DNA of 64,000 bases from Curtobacterium sp. Leaf261. Its GTDB lineage: Bacteria; Actinomycetota; Actinomycetes; Actinomycetales; Microbacteriaceae. The notes below the pieces were generated by a model that saw nothing but the letters and a program-made list of their open reading frames with translations, did no database searches and had not been told where the DNA came from. Every line of letters begins with the position of its first letter. The stretch's first letter is position 1. The stretch lies in contig NZ_LMMJ01000010.1 of the NCBI RefSeq assembly GCF_001422205.1, positions 124,001-188,000 on the forward strand. Direction: 5' to 3'. Below are positions 10,991-50,693 of the stretch, in pieces. A program made the translations under genes and the position numbers.

Positions 10991-11986
10991 GTGGAGCAAG
11001 GAGCACGGAACGGATTTCGTCGGACACGCATGTCGAGCGACGACGGCGTCGACTACCGGGCGATCTTCGAGGAGGAGTACGCCGGGACCGACCTGACGGC
11101 GTCGGCCTTCGCTGAATCGACCACCACGTTCGAGTACACGATCGCCGGCGACGACGACGTCTCCCTGCGCACGATGCGCTCGGGCGGTGGTCGTCGTGGC
11201 GGGGTCATCGGACCGCTGGCCGACCACGTGGTGTTCTGGCTCAGCGAGGGTCGGGTCGACCTGCACTTCGAGGACCACGTCCGCACCGTGCTGCCCGGTG
11301 TCCCGACCATCGTCTCCGCCGGTGTCGCCCGCCGGTTCGACTCCCACGAGACGCGGTACAACGGCGTGCACGTCAACGACGAGTTCATCCGGGCGGTCGC
11401 GAAGGACCTCGGGATGCGCGTTCCGAGCGGGCCGATCCTGTTCGAGCAGCAGGACGACCAGGTCGTCGCGCTCGCGCCCCTCCGGACGCTGATCCGGACG
11501 ATCGGGCCGCAGCTGGTCGACCCGGCGACATCGGCGGAGGAGCGTGCCGTGCTGAACCGTCGCGTCGCCACCGTCGTGCTCGACACGTTCCCGATCCGGG
11601 CGGTGGCCGCCGGAGGCGGAGGCGACGTGGTGACCGGTCCCGGCGGGCGTTCCGGAGCCGCCGACCGGTTGAGTGCGGCGCTCGCCTTCGTGCAGCACCA
11701 CGCCGGCGACCGGGTGGTGCTCGCCGACATCGCGGACGCCGCCGGGCTCAGCGTCCGCGGGCTGCAGTTGCTGTTCCGGCGGACGCTCGAGACGACGCCG
11801 ATGAACCACCTCGCCGACGTCCGGTTCGAGCGTGTCCGTCGTGAGCTCCTGGACGGGACACCGGGGACCATGCGCGTCACGACGATCGCCCGACGCTGGC
11901 AGTTCGGGAATCTCGGCCGGTTCTCCGGGTCGTACCGCGAACGGTTCGGCGAGCTGCCGATGGAGACACTCCGTCGTTCTCAGTGA
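10991..11986 (+). CDS. AraC family transcriptional regulator
   Basis: About 331 residues. The N-terminal part resembles the cupin-like sensing domain of AraC/AraC_binding_2 regulators. The C-terminal 110 residues hold the two-HTH AraC domain: VVLADIADAAGLSVRGLQLLFRRTLETTPMNHL and later TTIARRWQFGNLGRFSGSYRERFGELP, the second being the typical AraC signature. GTG 10991 is preferred because a -10-like CATGAT ends 6 nt before it; the ATG at 11030 has neither an SD nor a -10. No operon partner is evident: the genes around it read in the same direction but are separated by 140 and 299 bp. Confidence 0.88.
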   Translation: MEQGARNGFRRTRMSSDDGVDYRAIFEEEYAGTDLTASAFAESTTTFEYTIAGDDDVSLRTMRSGGGRRGGVIGPLADHVVFWLSEGRVDLHFEDHVRTVLPGVPTIVSAGVARRFDSHETRYNGVHVNDEFIRAVAKDLGMRVPSGPILFEQQDDQVVALAPLRTLIRTIGPQLVDPATSAEERAVLNRRVATVVLDTFPIRAVAAGGGGDVVTGPGGRSGAADRLSAALAFVQHHAGDRVVLADIADAAGLSVRGLQLLFRRTLETTPMNHLADVRFERVRRELLDGTPGTMRVTTIARRWQFGNLGRFSGSYRERFGELPMETLRRSQ

Positions 11987-12174
11987 CGCCTGCCGACGTG
12001 CGCCGATGCGTCCCGGACGTGCCCCCGACGTGCCCCACGAGGTGTCGAAGACGTGCCGCGGACGTGCCCATCGACGTACCCCTCGCACGGGGGTAGTCGC
12101 GGCCGCATCGCGCAGGAACCGGTCCGACGCTGCCGCAGTTGTACCCCGATGTGTCCTCATCCTCGAAGTTGCCT

Positions 12175-12201
12175 GGGAACGGTGAGGGCCGTGTGACGAT
12201 T
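12175..12201 (+). promoter_or_regulatory. Possible ECF-sigma-type promoter of the Asp23 cluster
   Basis: GGGAAC (12175-12180), 16 nt, then CGATT (12197-12201) resembles the GGAAC/CGTT promoters used by actinobacterial SigE/SigH-type factors. It would give a leader of about 80 nt ahead of ATG 12286. The rest of the gap 11987-12174 holds imperfect GACGTGCC repeats and a TACCCC-N7-GGGGTA inverted repeat (12077-12095). Confidence 0.4.
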
Positions 12202-12285
12202 CTCGGTCCATGCCCGTCTTCTCCGTGAACCCGCTCGGAGACGCAGTCGGGTCACTGCAGACACACCTCGAACCAAGGAGAGATC

Positions 12286-12741
12286 ATGGCTGAGAACACC
12301 ACCCCCACCACCCCGAAGAGCGTCGTGCCCGGCTCCGCCGCATCGACCAGCCAGTCCGGCTCCGGCAAGACCGTCATCGACGACACCGTCGTCGCCAAGG
12401 TCGCCGGCATCGCGGCGCGCGAGGTCAGCGGCGTCTACGCACTCGGTGGCGGTGCAGCCCGCGCGATCGGTGCGATCCGTTCCGCGATCGGCAACGAGGA
12501 CCACGGCCAGGGCGTCAAGGTCGAGGTCGGCGAGCGCCAGGTCGCCGCCGACGTCACGATCGTCGCCGAGTACCCCGTGTCGCTCCAGGACGTCGCCGAG
12601 GGCGTGCGCAAGTCGGTCGGCAACGCGATCCAGCACATCATCGGCATGGAGATCGCCGAGATCAACGTCACCATCCAGGACGTCCACATCCCGGGTGACG
12701 ACGACAACGACGACGACAAGAAGGAGTCGCGAGTCGCATGA
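12286..12741 (+). CDS. Asp23/Gls24 family envelope stress protein
   Basis: 151 residues. After a Ser/Thr/Pro-rich start, the Asp23 domain runs from IDDTVVAKVAGIAAREVSGVYALGG through VEVGERQVAADVTIVAEYPVSLQDVAEGVRKSVGNAI to INVTIQDVHI, matching the family throughout. The tail is acidic then basic (DDDNDDDKKESR). In Staphylococcus, Asp23 is a cytoplasmic, membrane-associated protein tethered by AmaP and linked to cell-envelope stress. The start has a strong AAGGAG 6 nt upstream. It heads an eight-gene co-directional cluster. Confidence 0.92.
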   Translation: MAENTTPTTPKSVVPGSAASTSQSGSGKTVIDDTVVAKVAGIAAREVSGVYALGGGAARAIGAIRSAIGNEDHGQGVKVEVGERQVAADVTIVAEYPVSLQDVAEGVRKSVGNAIQHIIGMEIAEINVTIQDVHIPGDDDNDDDKKESRVA

Positions 12742-12929
12742 GCACCCCCCTCATCGGCGCCCTGATCGGCGCCATCCTCGCCGTCGTCGCCCTCCAGTTC
12801 GGTTTCTGGGGCTTCGTGCTCGTCATCGTGTTCGGTGCGATCGGTGCCCTCGTGGCAGCGCTCGCCACGGGCCGCATCGACTTCGCTGCCCTCCGGGACG
12901 TCCTGACCGGTCGCCGGAGCTCCCGGTGA
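12738..12929 (+). CDS. Small two-TM protein of the Asp23 cluster (DUF2273-like)
   Basis: 63 residues: MSTPLIGALIGAILAVVALQFG, then WGFVLVIVFGAIGALVAALATG, and a short basic tail. Size, two adjacent helices and position directly after Asp23 match the small DUF2273-type membrane proteins found in Asp23 loci. It overlaps asp23 by ATGA (12738-12741) and the next gene by GTGA, so translation is coupled in both directions. Confidence 0.8.
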   Translation: MSTPLIGALIGAILAVVALQFGFWGFVLVIVFGAIGALVAALATGRIDFAALRDVLTGRRSSR

Positions 12930-13240
12930 CCGGGGGCCCGGCCATCCCGGGACACGTCGAGATCAGCACGCGCGCGCTGACGTCGTGCGCCCGGGCCGTC
13001 ACGGCCGAGCGGCTCGGCGTTCCCGCGGGTCGTGTCCGGGTCTCGCTCGACGACCACGAGGGCGGGATCGCCCTCGACATCGCAAGCCCGATCGGCGACT
13101 CCTCCGGGATCGTCGACGGGGCCAGGGACGGCGCCGTCGCCATCCGTGAGCGGCTCTCGTCGCTCATCGGACGTCGTGTCGGGGCCGCCAGGATCGAGCT
13201 CACCGGCATCGTCCGGACCTCGACCAACCGCACTCGCTGA
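12926..13240 (+). CDS. Small Asp23-like protein
   Basis: 104 residues starting GTG 12926 inside the previous stop codon (GTGA). The sequence keeps the Asp23-like order HVEISTRALTSCARAVTAERLGVP, VRVSLDDHEGGIALDIASPIG and the helix GARDGAVAIRERLSSLIGRRVGAARIELTGIV, but is shorter than Asp23 and lacks its tails. It is best described as a divergent Asp23-family or Asp23-associated protein. The downstream gene follows by 14 bp with a strong SD. Confidence 0.75.
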   Translation: MTGGPAIPGHVEISTRALTSCARAVTAERLGVPAGRVRVSLDDHEGGIALDIASPIGDSSGIVDGARDGAVAIRERLSSLIGRRVGAARIELTGIVRTSTNRTR

Positions 13241-13254
13241 AGGAGGCGAACCGC

Positions 13255-13830
13255 ATGAGCAACACATCTCTCGAGCGCCGCCTCCGGCGTCGCTCCGTCC
13301 ACCGGAGCCGTTCCACGGCCGTGTCGATCGCGCTGGTCGTGCTCGTCCTGGTCGCAGCATGGATCGGACTGGAGGCAGTGCTCGCCGCCATGGGCACCGC
13401 ACCACTCCTCGTGGCACCGCAGGACGCGGTCAACGCCGCGCTCCGCCCGGACGCCGCCGGCACCACCATCGCGGTGGCCTCGGCCGTCGTCCTGCTGGTC
13501 CTCGGTGTCTGGCTGATCGTCTTGGCACTCAAGCCCGGACGGCAGCACCGCCGCTCCGTGCCGAACGACCGTGCCGTGGTCGTCGTCGACGATCACATCG
13601 TGGCTTCCACCGCGGTGTCCGCAGCGTCGCTCGCGGCCGGTATCTCGCCGGACCAGGTCGATGCGTGGTCCAAGGGTCGTCGCATCGGCGTCCGGATCGT
13701 CCCGACCTCGGGCTTCCCCGTCGACGAGCACGTCGTCAAGGCGGCCATCGAGGACCGCCTGAAGTCCCTCGACAGCGGACTCGCGCATCGTGTGTCCGTC
13801 GACATCGCCTCGAAGGGGGTGCTCGCATGA
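13255..13830 (+). CDS. DUF6286-type membrane protein of the Asp23 cluster
   Basis: 191 residues. A basic N-terminus (RRLRRRSVHRSR) precedes a helix at about 21-47, a periplasm-facing loop and a second helix at about 75-92, followed by a cytoplasmic alpha/beta domain (VVVVDDHIVASTAVSAASLAAGISPDQVDAW to HRVSVDIASKGV). This layout is that of the DUF6286 proteins found in actinobacterial Asp23 clusters. AAGGAGG is placed ideally before the ATG. Overlaps the next gene by ATGA. Confidence 0.8.
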   Translation: MSNTSLERRLRRRSVHRSRSTAVSIALVVLVLVAAWIGLEAVLAAMGTAPLLVAPQDAVNAALRPDAAGTTIAVASAVVLLVLGVWLIVLALKPGRQHRRSVPNDRAVVVVDDHIVASTAVSAASLAAGISPDQVDAWSKGRRIGVRIVPTSGFPVDEHVVKAAIEDRLKSLDSGLAHRVSVDIASKGVLA

Positions 13831-14390
13831 CCAGCAGCAACCGCACCATGAACCGGATCGTGCTGTTCATCCTCGGTCTCGTCGCGATCGTCGCTGCCCT
13901 CGTCGGCGGTGCCGGGGTGCTGCCGCCCGTCCGCGACGCACTGTCGCAGTACGTGACCCTGCCGAAGAGCGTGACCCTCGACACGACGACCCTCTGGATC
14001 GTCGCCGTCGTGTGCGTCGTCGTGATCGTCCTGTCGATCATCTGGATCGTCACGCGAGGCCGCGGTGGCACGTCCATCGCACTCCGTGAGGAGAAGGGCG
14101 ACGACCAGGTCACCGTCAACGTCGGTCTGGTCCGCGACGTCATCGAGCACGAGCTCGACGAGGTCCGCGACGTGGTCGGCACCCGTGTCGATCTCTACCG
14201 GGTCCGCAAGCAGCGCGCCGCCCGCGTCCGGATCTCGGTCCGCCGCGGTGGCGACGCCGCGACGGTGCTCGATGCGGTCGACCGTGCACTCGCAACGCTC
14301 GACCGCGTCCTCGGCCGGCAGGTCCCGACCCTCGTCCACCTGACCGGTGGCACGAAGTCGGTCCTCGCCAAGAAGGTCCGCGTCCAGTAG
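13827..14390 (+). CDS. amaP: AmaP-like Asp23 membrane anchor
   Basis: 187 residues: two membrane helices (about 10-28 and 53-74) bracket an extracytoplasmic loop, then a cytoplasmic domain VTVNVGLVRDVIEHELDEVRDVVGTRVDLYRVRKQRAARVRISVRRGGDAATVLDAVDRALATLDRVLG. The layout matches alkaline-shock-response membrane anchor proteins (AmaP), which hold Asp23 at the membrane; homology is inferred from architecture and position. Starts in the preceding stop codon (ATGA). Confidence 0.78.
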   Translation: MTSSNRTMNRIVLFILGLVAIVAALVGGAGVLPPVRDALSQYVTLPKSVTLDTTTLWIVAVVCVVVIVLSIIWIVTRGRGGTSIALREEKGDDQVTVNVGLVRDVIEHELDEVRDVVGTRVDLYRVRKQRAARVRISVRRGGDAATVLDAVDRALATLDRVLGRQVPTLVHLTGGTKSVLAKKVRVQ

Positions 14391-14458
14391 GTCGCGGTAC
14401 CACCGGCACAGCTCCGTATCGCGAACACCACCTCACCAGCACTGAAAGGAAGTCCGAC

Positions 14459-14632
14459 ATGGGCCTCGACGACAAGATCAAGAACGCTGCACAGGACCTC
14501 GCCGGCAAGGCGAAGGAAGCCGTCGGCAACGCCACGAACGACGACAGCAAGGTCGCGGACGGCAAGAAGGACCAGGCCGCCGCGAGCGCGAAGAAGACCG
14601 GCGAGGACGTCAAGGACGTCTTCAAGAACTGA
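14459..14632 (+). CDS. CsbD family stress protein
   Basis: 57 residues starting MGLDDKIKNAAQDLAGKAKEA, with the CsbD pattern of charged, Lys/Asp/Ala-rich, poorly hydrophobic sequence and KDQAAASAKKTGEDVKDVFKN at the end. CsbD proteins are general-stress (SigB-type) proteins of unknown mechanism. The SD AAAGGAAG sits about 8 nt before the ATG. A strong hairpin terminator follows the stop codon, so a shorter transcript ending here is likely, with read-through needed for the next two genes unless they have their own promoter. Confidence 0.88.
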   Translation: MGLDDKIKNAAQDLAGKAKEAVGNATNDDSKVADGKKDQAAASAKKTGEDVKDVFKN

Positions 14633-14649
14633 TCGACTCCGCAGCACCC

Positions 14650-14687
14650 CGGCGCCCCGCTCCGCATGAACGCGGAGCGGGGCGCCG
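14650..14687 (+). terminator. Intrinsic-type terminator after the CsbD gene
   Basis: CGGCGCCCCGCTCCGC (14650-14665) and its exact complement (14672-14687) form a 16-bp stem with the 6-nt loop ATGAAC, followed by TTCCTCG. It lies inside the Asp23 cluster. Confidence 0.8.
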
Positions 14688-14744
14688 TTCCTCGTCCGCC
14701 ACCCACCACCGCTTCGTCACCCATCACCGCAAGGAGGTCGTCTG

Positions 14745-15938
14745 ATGACCGACCAACACCACACCGTCACCCCGGTCGCACTGCCGACCGCGCTCACCGA
14801 ACCACTGCCGGACGACGCCACGCTGGCGACCCGGCTCGCACGCACCGCAGCGGAGACGGCCTCCGCCGTCCACGGTGTCCACGGCCTCGGCGGGATCGCC
14901 GCCCGCGCTGCCGACCGTCTCCGTGAGCGTCTCGGCCAGAACGCCGGTGCCCCGGGTGTCCGGGTCGACATCACGGACGAGCGCACCGAGGTCACGGTGG
15001 CGATCGTCGTCGAGTACCCGGAGGTCGTGACGCGCGTCGCCGACGCGGTCCGCACCCAGGTCGAGCACGCGGTCACGCAGCTCTCGGACGCCCCGATCTC
15101 CGTCGACGTCCGCGTCATCGACGTGCACGGTCCGTTCGACCGGGACACCGAACCCGCCGACCTCATCGACTCGGCAGCCGACGCGGTCCAGGGGGCCGCG
15201 GCCGCCACGAAGGACGCAGCCGTCCGCGCGACCGACGCGACGAAGGACGCTGCCGTCCGCGCGTCGGACGCGACGAAGGACGCCGCGGTCCGCGCTGCCG
15301 AGGCCACGAAGGACGCAGCGGTCCGCACGGCCGACGTGACGAAGGACGTCGCGGGTGCCGCGAGGGACGCCAGTGTCACCGCTGCGGACGCCACGAAGGA
15401 CGCTGCCGTCCGGGCTGCCGACGCCACGAAGGACGCTGCGGTCGCCGCGGCGGAGACGACCAGGGCCGCCGCGGACACCGCGCGCGACTCGGCCGTGGCC
15501 GTGAAGGACGCCGCTGTCGAGGCCGGTGATGCCGCCGCAGACGCAACCGCGTCCGCCGCGGACTCAACGGCCGAGGCTGCCGGACGCGCCGTCGACGCCG
15601 GCCGGACCGTCGTCGAGGACGCCCGGGACGCCTCCAGGACGGCTGCCGACGACGTCGCCGACGCGACGCGCGCTGCTGCCGACGACGTCGCCGACGCGAC
15701 GCGCGCTGCTGCTGCCGACGTCGCCGACGCGACGCGCGCTCCTGCCGACGACCTCGCCGACGCCACGCGCGCTCCTGCCGACGACGTCCCCGCCGCGATG
15801 CCTGCCGCCGACACCGCGGCAGATGCCTCGGCCGCGACCGCGGCCCGTGACGCCGCCGACCGAGTCGCCGACGCCGCGGACTCCGCAGCGGACGCGATCG
15901 CCGCGGAGTCGGAGGATCGTCGGACGGATCCCGCGTGA
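14745..15938 (+). CDS. Asp23 domain fused to LEA-like 11-residue repeats
   Basis: 397 residues. Residues about 33-125 are an Asp23/Gls24 domain (HGVHGLGGIAARAADRLRER, VDITDERTEVTVAIVVEYPEV, ISVDVRVIDVHG). From residue 154 the chain becomes an 11-residue repeat, ATKDAAVRAAD, with seven clear copies, one degenerate copy and one broken 7-residue unit. A second block of five 11-mers, ADDVADATRAA, starts at residue 300. The 11-residue periodicity and Ala/Lys/Asp/Glu composition match group 3 LEA and plasma-apolipoprotein-like amphipathic helices, which can lie on membranes or protect during desiccation. AAGGAGGT is a near-perfect SD. The final GTGA overlaps the next gene. Confidence 0.88.
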   Translation: MTDQHHTVTPVALPTALTEPLPDDATLATRLARTAAETASAVHGVHGLGGIAARAADRLRERLGQNAGAPGVRVDITDERTEVTVAIVVEYPEVVTRVADAVRTQVEHAVTQLSDAPISVDVRVIDVHGPFDRDTEPADLIDSAADAVQGAAAATKDAAVRATDATKDAAVRASDATKDAAVRAAEATKDAAVRTADVTKDVAGAARDASVTAADATKDAAVRAADATKDAAVAAAETTRAAADTARDSAVAVKDAAVEAGDAAADATASAADSTAEAAGRAVDAGRTVVEDARDASRTAADDVADATRAAADDVADATRAAAADVADATRAPADDLADATRAPADDVPAAMPAADTAADASAATAARDAADRVADAADSAADAIAAESEDRRTDPA

Positions 15939-16348
15939 GCGGCTGGTCACGCCGCCGGGCGCTCGCCCGGCGGCCCCGTGCCCGCGGCGTGTGGTTCGCG
16001 ACCGGGACCGGGCTCGTCGTCGCCGTCGTGCTGTTCCTCGTCGCCTTCCTGCCGCTCGTCGGTCTCCTCGCGGGGATCACTGCGGGCACCGCCGGACTCG
16101 TCCCGTTCCCGGCCGGCAGCGTCATCGCCGTCACGGTGCTCGGCGGGGTCATCGTCCTCGCGCTGCTCGTGCTCGCGGTCACCCGGCGGCATGCGACACC
16201 CGCGTGGCTCGCGTCGGCCCTGGCGATGATCGTCACCGTCGGGGTCGTCGTCTTCCCGGTGGTCGCCGTCGCGATCGGCTCGGCTGACCGTGCCGCGGAC
16301 TTCTGGCCGACGGTCGCGGACATCTGGCAGCGGATCACCGGAGGCTGA
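15935..16348 (+). CDS. Membrane protein at the end of the Asp23 cluster
   Basis: 137 residues with four probable helices (about 22-42, 45-62, 63-83 and 91-113) after a strongly basic start (RRRALARRPRARG). No family that I can name. GTG 15935 overlaps the stop of the Asp23-LEA gene, so it is translationally coupled to it, which suggests a membrane partner for that protein. The next gene lies on the opposite strand and converges. Confidence 0.7.
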   Translation: MSGWSRRRALARRPRARGVWFATGTGLVVAVVLFLVAFLPLVGLLAGITAGTAGLVPFPAGSVIAVTVLGGVIVLALLVLAVTRRHATPAWLASALAMIVTVGVVVFPVVAVAIGSADRAADFWPTVADIWQRITGG

Positions 16349-16399
16349 CCGAGGACAGGTCCCCGCGCAGGTGTCGCCGGCGTGCGGGTCTCGTCGCGG

Positions 16400-16855
16400 C
16401 TACGAGTCGGCGAACACCACGCGCATCGGCAGGCGCTTCGCGATCTCGCCGTCGACGCGGATCACCCACGAGTACCCGCCGACGTGGTCGAGCACGAGGT
16501 CGTTCACGGTGAACGTCACCGGGTGGGTCTGGGTGTCCCCGGGTCGGAGGAGCGGCGGCCGCTGCGCCACGAAGCGGTGGCCGATCTCCCCGATGACGTT
16601 CCCCGGCTCGACCCCGGGGCCCTGCCGGACGAGCGGGACGAGTGCGCCGTCCTCGGTCTCCAGGTGCACGTTGATGTCGTGTTCGGCGTCCGTGTCGTTC
16701 CACCCGGTGTGCACGAGCAGGCCGAGCGCGACCCGGGACTGGACGGCCGGGAGTGCCCGGACCGCGACCATGTCCCACCCCGCTCCCAGCACGTAGAGCT
16801 TGCCGCCGACGGCCTCGGCCGAGTCGGCGAGGAACGCGGTCACCTCGACGGTCAT
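16400..16855 (-). CDS. DUF6941-like protein
   Basis: 151 residues, no signal peptide. The opening VEVTAFLADSAEAVGGKLYVLGAGWD is the characteristic start of the DUF6941 family, followed by a beta-rich body (RVALGLLVHTGWNDTDAEHDINVHLE, THPVTFTVNDLVLDHVGGYSWVIRVDGE). Function is unknown. Its ATG overlaps the stop of the CDF exporter gene upstream (minus-strand ATGA), so the two are co-translated. Confidence 0.8.
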   Translation of the reverse strand: MTVEVTAFLADSAEAVGGKLYVLGAGWDMVAVRALPAVQSRVALGLLVHTGWNDTDAEHDINVHLETEDGALVPLVRQGPGVEPGNVIGEIGHRFVAQRPPLLRPGDTQTHPVTFTVNDLVLDHVGGYSWVIRVDGEIAKRLPMRVVFADS

Positions 16856-50564: not shown

Positions 50565-50693
50565 GCGCATGCTGCCGGACTGGAGGCCCGTCCCACCGTC
50601 ACCGGTCGACGCGCGTCCGCCGCGCATGCTGCCGGACTGGAGGCCCGTCCCACCGTCACCGGTCGACGCGCGTCCGCCGCGCCTCCAGTCCGG
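50565..50693. repeat. 57-bp direct repeat with GGACTGGAGG cores and inverted closing arm
   Basis: The unit beginning GCGCATGCTGCCGGACTGG is present at 50565-50621 and again at 50622-50678, nearly identical. GCCTCCAGTCCGG (50681-50693) is the complement of CCGGACTGGAGGC in each unit (50575-50587 and 50632-50644), so two alternative hairpins are possible. The gap 50513-50819 shows nothing else except a TAGGGA (50809) ahead of the next gene. Confidence 0.8.

What the first reader, a model, noticed from the sequence alone, without database searches (positions are those of the whole stretch)
14745..15938. Asp23 domain fused to a LEA/apolipoprotein-like 11-residue repeat tail
Residues 154-252 and 300-355 are two distinct 11-residue repeat blocks (ATKDAAVRAAD, ADDVADATRAA) directly after an Asp23 domain. 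I do not know a described Asp23-LEA fusion. Such helices can lie on membranes or protect proteins in drying, so it may join envelope-stress sensing to desiccation tolerance.
Basis: partly seen in the sequence, partly recalled or inferred. Interest (0 to 1): 0.7.

Follow-up and report, generated by a model that had tools for sequence, protein, structure and literature searches.

The report
Stress protein with long 11-residue repeats
A plant-associated bacterium (Curtobacterium) and its relatives carry a cell-envelope stress protein with a long, probably helical tail of 11-residue repeats that resembles drought-protection and fat-carrying proteins, most likely by convergence; what the tail does is untested.

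Summary
ORF 14745-15938 (+) is an Asp23-domain protein (Pfam E 4.9e-12) with a ~250-residue Ala/Asp-rich tail of 11-residue repeats (lag-11 identity 0.515 versus 0.227 shuffled). A syntenic second Asp23 gene with such a tail occurs in Curtobacterium, Frigoribacterium, Clavibacter, Rathayibacter and Amnibacterium. Tail letters diverge, but helical periodicity stays at 97.5-100.5 degrees in 53 of 53 tails examined, and codon changes suggest purifying selection. LEA_4 and apolipoprotein membership is not met; reversed tails still match Apolipoprotein, shuffled ones do not, so the likeness is mainly pattern. AlphaFold gives a confident Asp23 domain plus four long helices of modest confidence. Best reading: an Asp23 anchor holding a conditional helical shield near the membrane during drying or envelope stress. 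In Curtobacterium aetherium two Asp23 and several CsbD genes rise on drying (PMC12029717); whether a tailed one is among them was not stated in what I read. Acidity and low computed lipid affinity argue against a constitutively membrane-lying helix. New variant of a known kind.

The parts
14745..15938 (+). Asp23-hendecad protein (397 aa), whole ORF
14844..15125 (+). Asp23 domain (residues 34-127); predicted alpha/beta domain, pLDDT mostly 87-97 (about 70 at residues 51-70), resembling the MamM C-terminal domain
15153..15500 (+). tail, first repeat block (residues 137-252; clean units from 154), predicted helices 137-199 and 203-268
15633..15797 (+). tail, second repeat block (residues about 297-351); predicted helix 275-341 covers most of it
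15807..15923 (+). last predicted helix of the tail (residues 355-393)
12286..12741 (+). canonical short Asp23 protein (first gene of the syntenic set)
   Evidence: Pfam E 8.7e-26; found upstream in 57 of 64 related loci
12738..12929 (+). DUF2273-like small protein
   Evidence: Pfam 25.7 bits versus cut-off 25.4; synteny
12926..13240 (+). small conserved ORF, family unknown (start assumed; weak AmaP-like match E 0.15)
13255..13830 (+). DUF6286 protein
   Evidence: 35.2 bits versus cut-off 35; synteny
13827..14390 (+). AmaP-like putative membrane anchor (below the AmaP cut-off)
   Evidence: NF033218 E 1.3e-10, 41.3 of 55 bits; synteny
14459..14632 (+). CsbD-like stress protein
   Evidence: Pfam E 3.9e-15
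14650..14687 (+). strong hairpin between csbD and the Asp23-hendecad gene
   Evidence: z -3.64
15935..16348 (+). hydrophobic, putative membrane protein (by eye) whose called start overlaps the stop of the Asp23-hendecad gene
   Evidence: directly downstream in 55 of 64 related loci

Best explanation
It is the second Asp23-family protein of a Microbacteriaceae envelope-stress gene set. The Asp23 domain (shown by profile) most likely docks the protein on the inner face of the membrane through the neighbouring AmaP-like and small membrane proteins, as Asp23 does in Staphylococcus (inferred from the family). The tail (repeat pattern shown; helix predicted) is an 11/3-periodic, Ala-rich, acidic helix former. 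I infer that it is loose or marginally packed in a wet cell and becomes long helices or a helical bundle when water is lost or the envelope is strained, coating and spacing the membrane surface and nearby proteins. So it would work like a tethered LEA or exchangeable-apolipoprotein segment without evidence of descent from either.
For: Asp23 domain: (32 of 32 members scanned). Gene set with AmaP-like, DUF2273, DUF6286 genes. Tail kept in most orthologues: 54 of 64 loci have a tail of 141 residues or more (L066 and L074 contain N gaps, L070 is cut by its contig end). Periodicity 97.5-100.5 degrees in 53 of 53 tails, z over shuffles 2.7 to 14.1. Median pN/pS 0.40 in the tail versus 0.21 in the Asp23 part, 77 pairs. 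28 of 67 tail gaps of at least 8 residues are multiples of 11 (pairs not independent). Long helices in both AlphaFold models. Drying induces Asp23 and CsbD genes in Curtobacterium aetherium (PMC12029717 section 3.8.2). S. aureus Asp23 sits on the inner membrane via AmaP (PMC6954212, passages).
Against: No experiment on this protein. The RNA-seq text read does not say whether a tailed Asp23 is induced. The AmaP-like protein is below the AmaP cut-off. Ten of 64 loci have tails under 100 residues, several of them Curtobacterium, and 12 of 66 genomes of the genus lack a match better than E 1e-30, so the tail is dispensable somewhere. Five of 54 long tails show weak lag-11 identity (z below 4: L096, L097, L117, L118, L125). 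AlphaFold tail pLDDT about 60-73, pTM 0.40, and the other four models score 65.8-67.7 against 73.9 for the best.
Confidence: 0.45

Rival explanations
1. The tail is a folded, straight (untwisted) helical bundle or spacer arm built from hendecads, a structural scaffold or oligomerisation element for Asp23 filaments rather than a stress-conditional shield.
For: AlphaFold draws helices 137-199, 203-268, 275-341, 355-393 and helices 140-195, 200-253, 255-327, 332-379 in L091; the best structural neighbour of the tail is a designed three-helix bundle, 4tql, Z 13.0, rmsd 3.3, 213 aligned. The 7-residue register slip near 209-215 lies near the predicted break at 200-202.
Against: pTM 0.40; Z about 13 is within what the tool's note gives for helical bundles as a merely common arrangement. 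Tail lengths vary from 4 to about 350 residues among orthologues (N-gapped ones left out), which a fixed bundle would not easily tolerate. The uncharged face in block 1 is almost only Ala and Thr.
Confidence: 0.28
2. The tail lies constitutively on the membrane as a lipid-binding amphipathic helix of the synuclein or apolipoprotein type.
For: 11/3 periodicity; weak phmmer matches of the window protein to synuclein chains (best E 0.05); 20 of 32 members match Apolipoprotein and 9 ApoLp-III at E up to 0.1. 8 of 16 relatives scored have some 18-mers above the recalled lower lipid-binding threshold and 2 of 16 above the upper one.
Against: Net charge -24 in the window tail and negative in 53 of 53 tails; the lipid-binding discriminant (formula and thresholds recalled, HeliQuest type) has a maximum of 0.59 in the window, no 18-mer above 0.68, and at most 7.9% of 18-mers above it in any of the 16 relatives; Val of block 1 falls among charged positions on the wheel; Apolipoprotein matches survive sequence reversal.
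Confidence: 0.12
3. The tail is a slipped-repeat expansion with little function.
For: 33-nt tandem arrays; copy number varies; tail-poor orthologues exist.
Against: pN/pS well below 1 in the tail; helical phase kept in 53 of 53 tails of 130-257 residues analysed, across genera whose repeat letters differ.
Confidence: 0.1
4. The tail binds ice, like type I fish antifreeze proteins, using Thr spaced by 11 residues.
For: In block 1 Thr is invariant at one position in 7 of 7 units with Ala beside it on the wheel, and Thr-Thr spacings of 11 and 22 are the commonest in the tail; a designed twist-constrained ice-binding protein, 8ek4, is among the structural matches, Z 10.4, rmsd 2.1. The antifreeze motif itself is recalled.
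Against: No regular Thr row is seen in the Clavibacter, Rathayibacter and Frigoribacterium tails (by eye); no signal peptide was seen by eye, so the protein is probably cytoplasmic; 8ek4 is one of many helical matches.
Confidence: 0.05

Closest known systems
Asp23/Gls24 family (Pfam PF03780; S. aureus Asp23, B. subtilis YqhY and YloU)
   Same: Asp23 domain over the curated cut-off; gene set with AmaP-like and DUF2273-like neighbours
   Different: C-terminal hendecad tail of about 250 residues; 29 of 29 best-scoring Asp23 loci of a class-wide draw (9 from the same family, 20 from others) end 0 to 11 residues after the match to the short Asp23
LEA_4 / group 3 LEA proteins
   Same: 11-residue, Ala-rich, charged repeats with helix propensity; stress setting
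   Different: No profile membership; net acidic; fused to an Asp23 domain
Apolipoprotein A1/A4/E and ApoLp-III; synuclein
   Same: 11/3 periodicity; sub-threshold profile matches in relatives
   Different: Apolipoprotein matches survive reversal of the sequence; net acidic; bacterial
YtxH-like and CsbD-like general stress proteins
   Same: 8 of 32 members hit YtxH at E up to 0.1; three relatives' tails reach 22.9-32.7 of 37.5 bits and this match drops on reversal (16.2-21.2 bits), so it is the likeness least explained by pattern alone; csbD is the neighbour gene
   Different: Below cut-off; the window protein hits neither family at E<1

Membership tests
Asp23 family (PF03780) | Asp23 profile over its curated cut-off | tested here: met
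   46.7 bits versus 28, residues 34-127; 32 of 32 members match
Asp23 family (PF03780) | Operon with membrane anchor AmaP and small membrane protein | tested here: inconclusive
   AmaP-like 41.3 of 55 bits, E 1.3e-10; DUF2273 25.7 versus 25.4; gene order conserved
Asp23 family (PF03780) | Localisation at the inner membrane and envelope-stress phenotype | not testable with these tools
   needs microscopy and a deletion mutant
LEA_4 (PF02987) | LEA_4 profile over cut-off 51.1 bits | tested here: not met
   no hit for the window protein at E<1; own-genome search finds one other place only, 15.5 bits; 1 of 32 members at E 0.025
LEA_4 (PF02987) | Repeating 11-residue motif | tested here: met
   lag-11 z 12.8; 11/3 periodicity in 53 of 53 tails
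LEA_4 (PF02987) | Disorder in water and helix on drying | not testable with these tools
   CD or FTIR needed; AlphaFold helices at pLDDT about 70 do not decide it
Apolipoprotein A1/A4/E (PF01442) | Profile over cut-off 90 bits | tested here: not met
   window tail no hit; of five relatives' tails four hit, best 31.8 bits, L114 none; best of 32 whole members E 8.4e-8; three reversed tails 20.2, 27.2 and 32.0 bits
Apolipoprotein A1/A4/E (PF01442) | Lipid binding | not testable with these tools
   only a recalled sequence index was computed, against binding for the window tail
YtxH-like (PF12732) | Profile over cut-off 37.5 bits | tested here: not met
   window protein no hit; best of five relatives' tails 32.7 bits

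The most novel reading that the evidence does not exclude
Microbacteriaceae have turned one Asp23 copy into a membrane-tethered desiccation shield: Asp23 filaments under the membrane display a dense brush of acidic hendecad tails that collapse into helices as water leaves, holding membrane and wall-synthesis machinery in place. Repeat number would tune the thickness of the layer to habitat dryness.
Probability: 0.25. Interest if true: 0.72.

Novelty: new variant of a known kind. Interest (0 to 1): 0.45.

Why it matters
S. aureus Asp23 is among the most abundant proteins of its cell (PMC5437119, passage) and its molecular function is described as unclear (PMC6954212, passage). A natural version that carries a long, evolvable, drought-protein-like tail gives a concrete handle: cut the tail, keep the domain, and ask what each part does. 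It would also be a case of LEA-like or apolipoprotein-like repeats, probably arisen by convergence, attached to a membrane-associated scaffold, in a genus with members that resist drying.

Tried and rejected
Homology of the tail to LEA or apolipoproteins: not supported. Reversing three tails (of the five run forward) keeps the Apolipoprotein match: L107 31.8 forward, 20.2 reversed; L113 28.9 and 27.2; L091 29.7 and 32.0 bits; three shuffled tails gave no hit of any family. Reversed tails also hit Synuclein (21.7 of 23.3 bits, one tail), LEA_4 (19.6 of 51.1, one) and Phasin_2 (one). Against a purely pattern-based reading: L107 loses a third of its Apolipoprotein score, the YtxH match falls in three of three (32.7 to 17.7, 30.0 to 16.2, 22.9 to 21.2) and the ApoLp-III hit of L091 (20.5) is gone. 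So distant kinship to YtxH-like tails is not excluded.

Plasmid carriage: tblastn of the first 150 residues against the plasmid collection found no match. Sigma-70 promoter or intrinsic terminator in 11980-16500: none found, not informative for an actinobacterium.

Solved Asp23 structure: a profile of 16 Asp23 domains against PDB sequences found nothing better than E 0.063. Foldseek found no PDB match at E <= 0.001; the best are MamM C-terminal domains at 3e-3. I read this as a shared small alpha/beta fold, not kinship.

Dropped rows: lag-11 z values of L066 and L074 (23.0 and 15.2) are inflated by N gaps; these two and the ten loci with tails under 100 residues were left out. One search left out 14 named loci (short, gapped, cut or with an uncertain start) and any coding sequence with N.

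Literature: ten answered searches (one search found no paper; searches list only part of their hits) showed no description of an Asp23 protein with 11-residue repeats. I saw listings only, except for six papers opened: passages (PMC6954212, PMC8317367, PMC5437119, PMC8096337), abstract and outline (PMC11350273), passages, outline and sections 3.8.2 and 4.2 (PMC12029717). The library lacks most subscription journals.

Full report
What is there. The ORF at 14745-15938 (+) encodes 397 residues. Pfam gives a single family at E<1, Asp23, at residues 34-127, E 4.9e-12, 46.7 bits over a cut-off of 28. The tail (from residue 151) is 41.5% Ala and 17.7% Asp with an 11-residue repeat: lag-11 identity 0.515 against 0.227 in shuffles (z 12.8; lags 22 and 33 also stand out). 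DNA repeats step by 33 nt with one 21-nt slip. Between units of block 1, differences concentrate in third codon positions (30, 34, 84 at positions 1, 2, 3 over 231 codon comparisons); block 2 units do not show this (14, 16, 16 over 110).

Surroundings. Seven neighbours lie on the same strand: short Asp23 (12286), DUF2273-like, a small ORF, DUF6286, an AmaP-like protein, CsbD-like, and downstream a hydrophobic protein whose called start overlaps the stop codon. The AmaP-like protein is under the NCBIfam cut-off (41.3 of 55 bits), so its anchor role is an inference. Relatives named by record titles are Curtobacterium (36 of 64 loci) and other Microbacteriaceae. The window's own assembly is unnamed; its genus is inferred, since proteins read from the same-genus set (for example L008) reappear in named Curtobacterium records (L068).

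Relatives. 66 of 66 genomes of the genus have some match, and 54 of 66 one better than E 1e-30. Named loci: Curtobacterium 36, unnamed Microbacteriaceae 2, Frigoribacterium 10, Rathayibacter 6, Clavibacter 5, Plantibacter 2, Agreia, Labedella and Amnibacterium 1 each. The short Asp23 gene was found upstream in 57 of 64 and the hydrophobic protein directly downstream in 55 of 64; five of the seven upstream misses begin near a contig edge, and five of the nine downstream misses are the Clavibacter loci. CsbD was detected upstream in the Curtobacterium loci that reach far enough and in Labedella, not in Frigoribacterium, Clavibacter, Rathayibacter, Plantibacter, Agreia or Amnibacterium (a 57-residue query may miss distant copies). 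Asp23 domains of any kind occur in 115 of 299 genomes drawn from the family. In those 299, an exact degenerate DNA pattern for DVHGPFD, the signature of this gene, occurs in 29 genomes of 11 of 85 genera; of the 30 places, 29 read as this gene (the window's own included), one (L160) is spurious, and 23 of the 29 have tails of more than 100 residues, one of them with an N gap. In a class-wide draw of 394 genomes, 64 have a match at E 1e-10; the 29 best-scoring loci that I read besides the window's own, 9 from the same family and 20 from others, are ordinary Asp23 proteins ending 0-11 residues after the match. Lower-ranked matches were not read.

Tail evolution. 54 of 64 loci have tails of 141 residues or more; ten are shorter than 100. 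The repeat letters differ by genus while helical periodicity is constant: 53 of 53 tails examined (window plus 52; 12 loci dropped, two for N gaps and ten for short tails) peak at 97.5-100.5 degrees per residue, near the 98.2 of three turns per 11 residues and away from the 102.9 of heptads; z over shuffles 2.7 to 14.1. Many of these sequences are closely related, so they are not independent. Lag-11 identity is weak (z below 4) in five long tails. In 77 close pairs the tail has median pN/pS 0.40 against 0.21 for the Asp23 part, which suggests a constrained protein segment. Of 67 tail gaps of at least 8 residues, 28 are multiples of 11 where about 6 would be expected by length alone; pairs share ancestry, so this is descriptive.

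What the tail is not. LEA_4: no hit in the window protein, none at this place in the genome, one weak member of 32. Apolipoprotein: 20 of 32 members match at E up to 0.1, yet four of five tails tested reach at most 31.8 of 90 required bits, the fifth and the window's own tail none. Reversed tails still match Apolipoprotein (20.2, 27.2, 32.0 bits against 31.8, 28.9, 29.7 forward) while three shuffled ones match nothing. So this likeness is mainly helical pattern, most simply convergence. The weak synuclein matches fit the same reading. YtxH is the exception: sub-threshold forward (22.9-32.7 of 37.5 bits) and lower on reversal (16.2-21.2), so distant kinship with YtxH-like stress proteins stays open.

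Structure. AlphaFold2 on the window protein with 31 relatives gives pLDDT mostly 87-97 in the Asp23 domain (about 70 at residues 51-70) and about 58-73 per ten residues in four long helices, pTM 0.40; L091 gives the same plan. The domain resembles the MamM C-terminal domain (Z up to 10.9, rmsd 2.0; Foldseek E 3e-3), the tail a designed three-helix bundle (Z 13.0, rmsd 3.3). Helix packing is unproven.

Mechanism. Shown: domain, repeats, periodicity, conservation, codon pattern, gene order. Predicted: helix. Inferred: membrane docking (S. aureus Asp23 binds the inner membrane through AmaP and forms filaments in vitro; PMC6954212, passages), conditional folding, protection on drying. Supporting context: in Curtobacterium aetherium one Asp23 gene is up at all four drying points and another at or below 50% water, with two CsbD genes (a third in the driest sample) (PMC12029717 section 3.8.2); section 4.2 does not mention Asp23. 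What I read does not say which Asp23 genes these are. Against membrane lying: net charge negative in 53 of 53 tails and no 18-residue stretch of the window tail above the recalled lipid-binding threshold; 8 of 16 relatives do have a few such stretches (0.4 to 7.9% of windows). In Bacillus the family member YqhY is linked to lipid synthesis (PMC5437119, passages), so a role other than envelope stress is open. A bacterial LEA_4 protein with eleven 11-residue repeats was found disordered by NMR although helices were predicted (PMC8096337, passages), a warning against reading AlphaFold helices literally.

Verdict. The names LEA and apolipoprotein should be used only for how it may work. New variant of the Asp23 family; interest moderate because function rests on inference.

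Noticed in passing
window 14650-14687, and 16 Curtobacterium loci such as L068:5901-5979: A strong hairpin lies between csbD and the Asp23-hendecad gene in 17 of 17 intergenic regions folded (window plus 16 chosen loci); stem letters differ between species while a stem is kept (z -2.8 to -3.9 in the six tested). No T run follows in the window, so it may be an mRNA processing or stability element or an attenuator.
   Followed up: partly
window 14844-15125: The predicted Asp23 domain resembles the cytosolic C-terminal domain of cation diffusion facilitators (MamM, MamB), Z up to 10.9; possibly a hint about the Asp23 fold in general.
   Followed up: partly
L072, L079, L098, L099, L101, L104: Curtobacterium loci (L101: unnamed Microbacteriaceae) with tails of only 4 to 92 residues. 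In L079 the downstream membrane gene was also not detected.
   Followed up: partly
L105-L108, L110, L112-L118, L121, L122, L126-L129: In the Clavibacter and Rathayibacter loci and several Frigoribacterium loci the tail ends in a Val/Asp-rich, strand-like segment not seen in the Curtobacterium tails (by eye).
   Followed up: no
L066, L074, L141: Assemblies have N gaps inside the repeat tail, so tail lengths from some genomes may be unreliable.
   Followed up: no
own genome G000:C8:63825-64007 and C7:549074-549262: Two further weak Asp23 profile matches (28.0 and 22.6 bits), not identified.
   Followed up: no
window 50565-50682 and 2533-2671: Other tandem arrays in the window: a 57-nt unit repeated about twice at 100% identity, and 14- and 51-nt repeats.
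   Followed up: no
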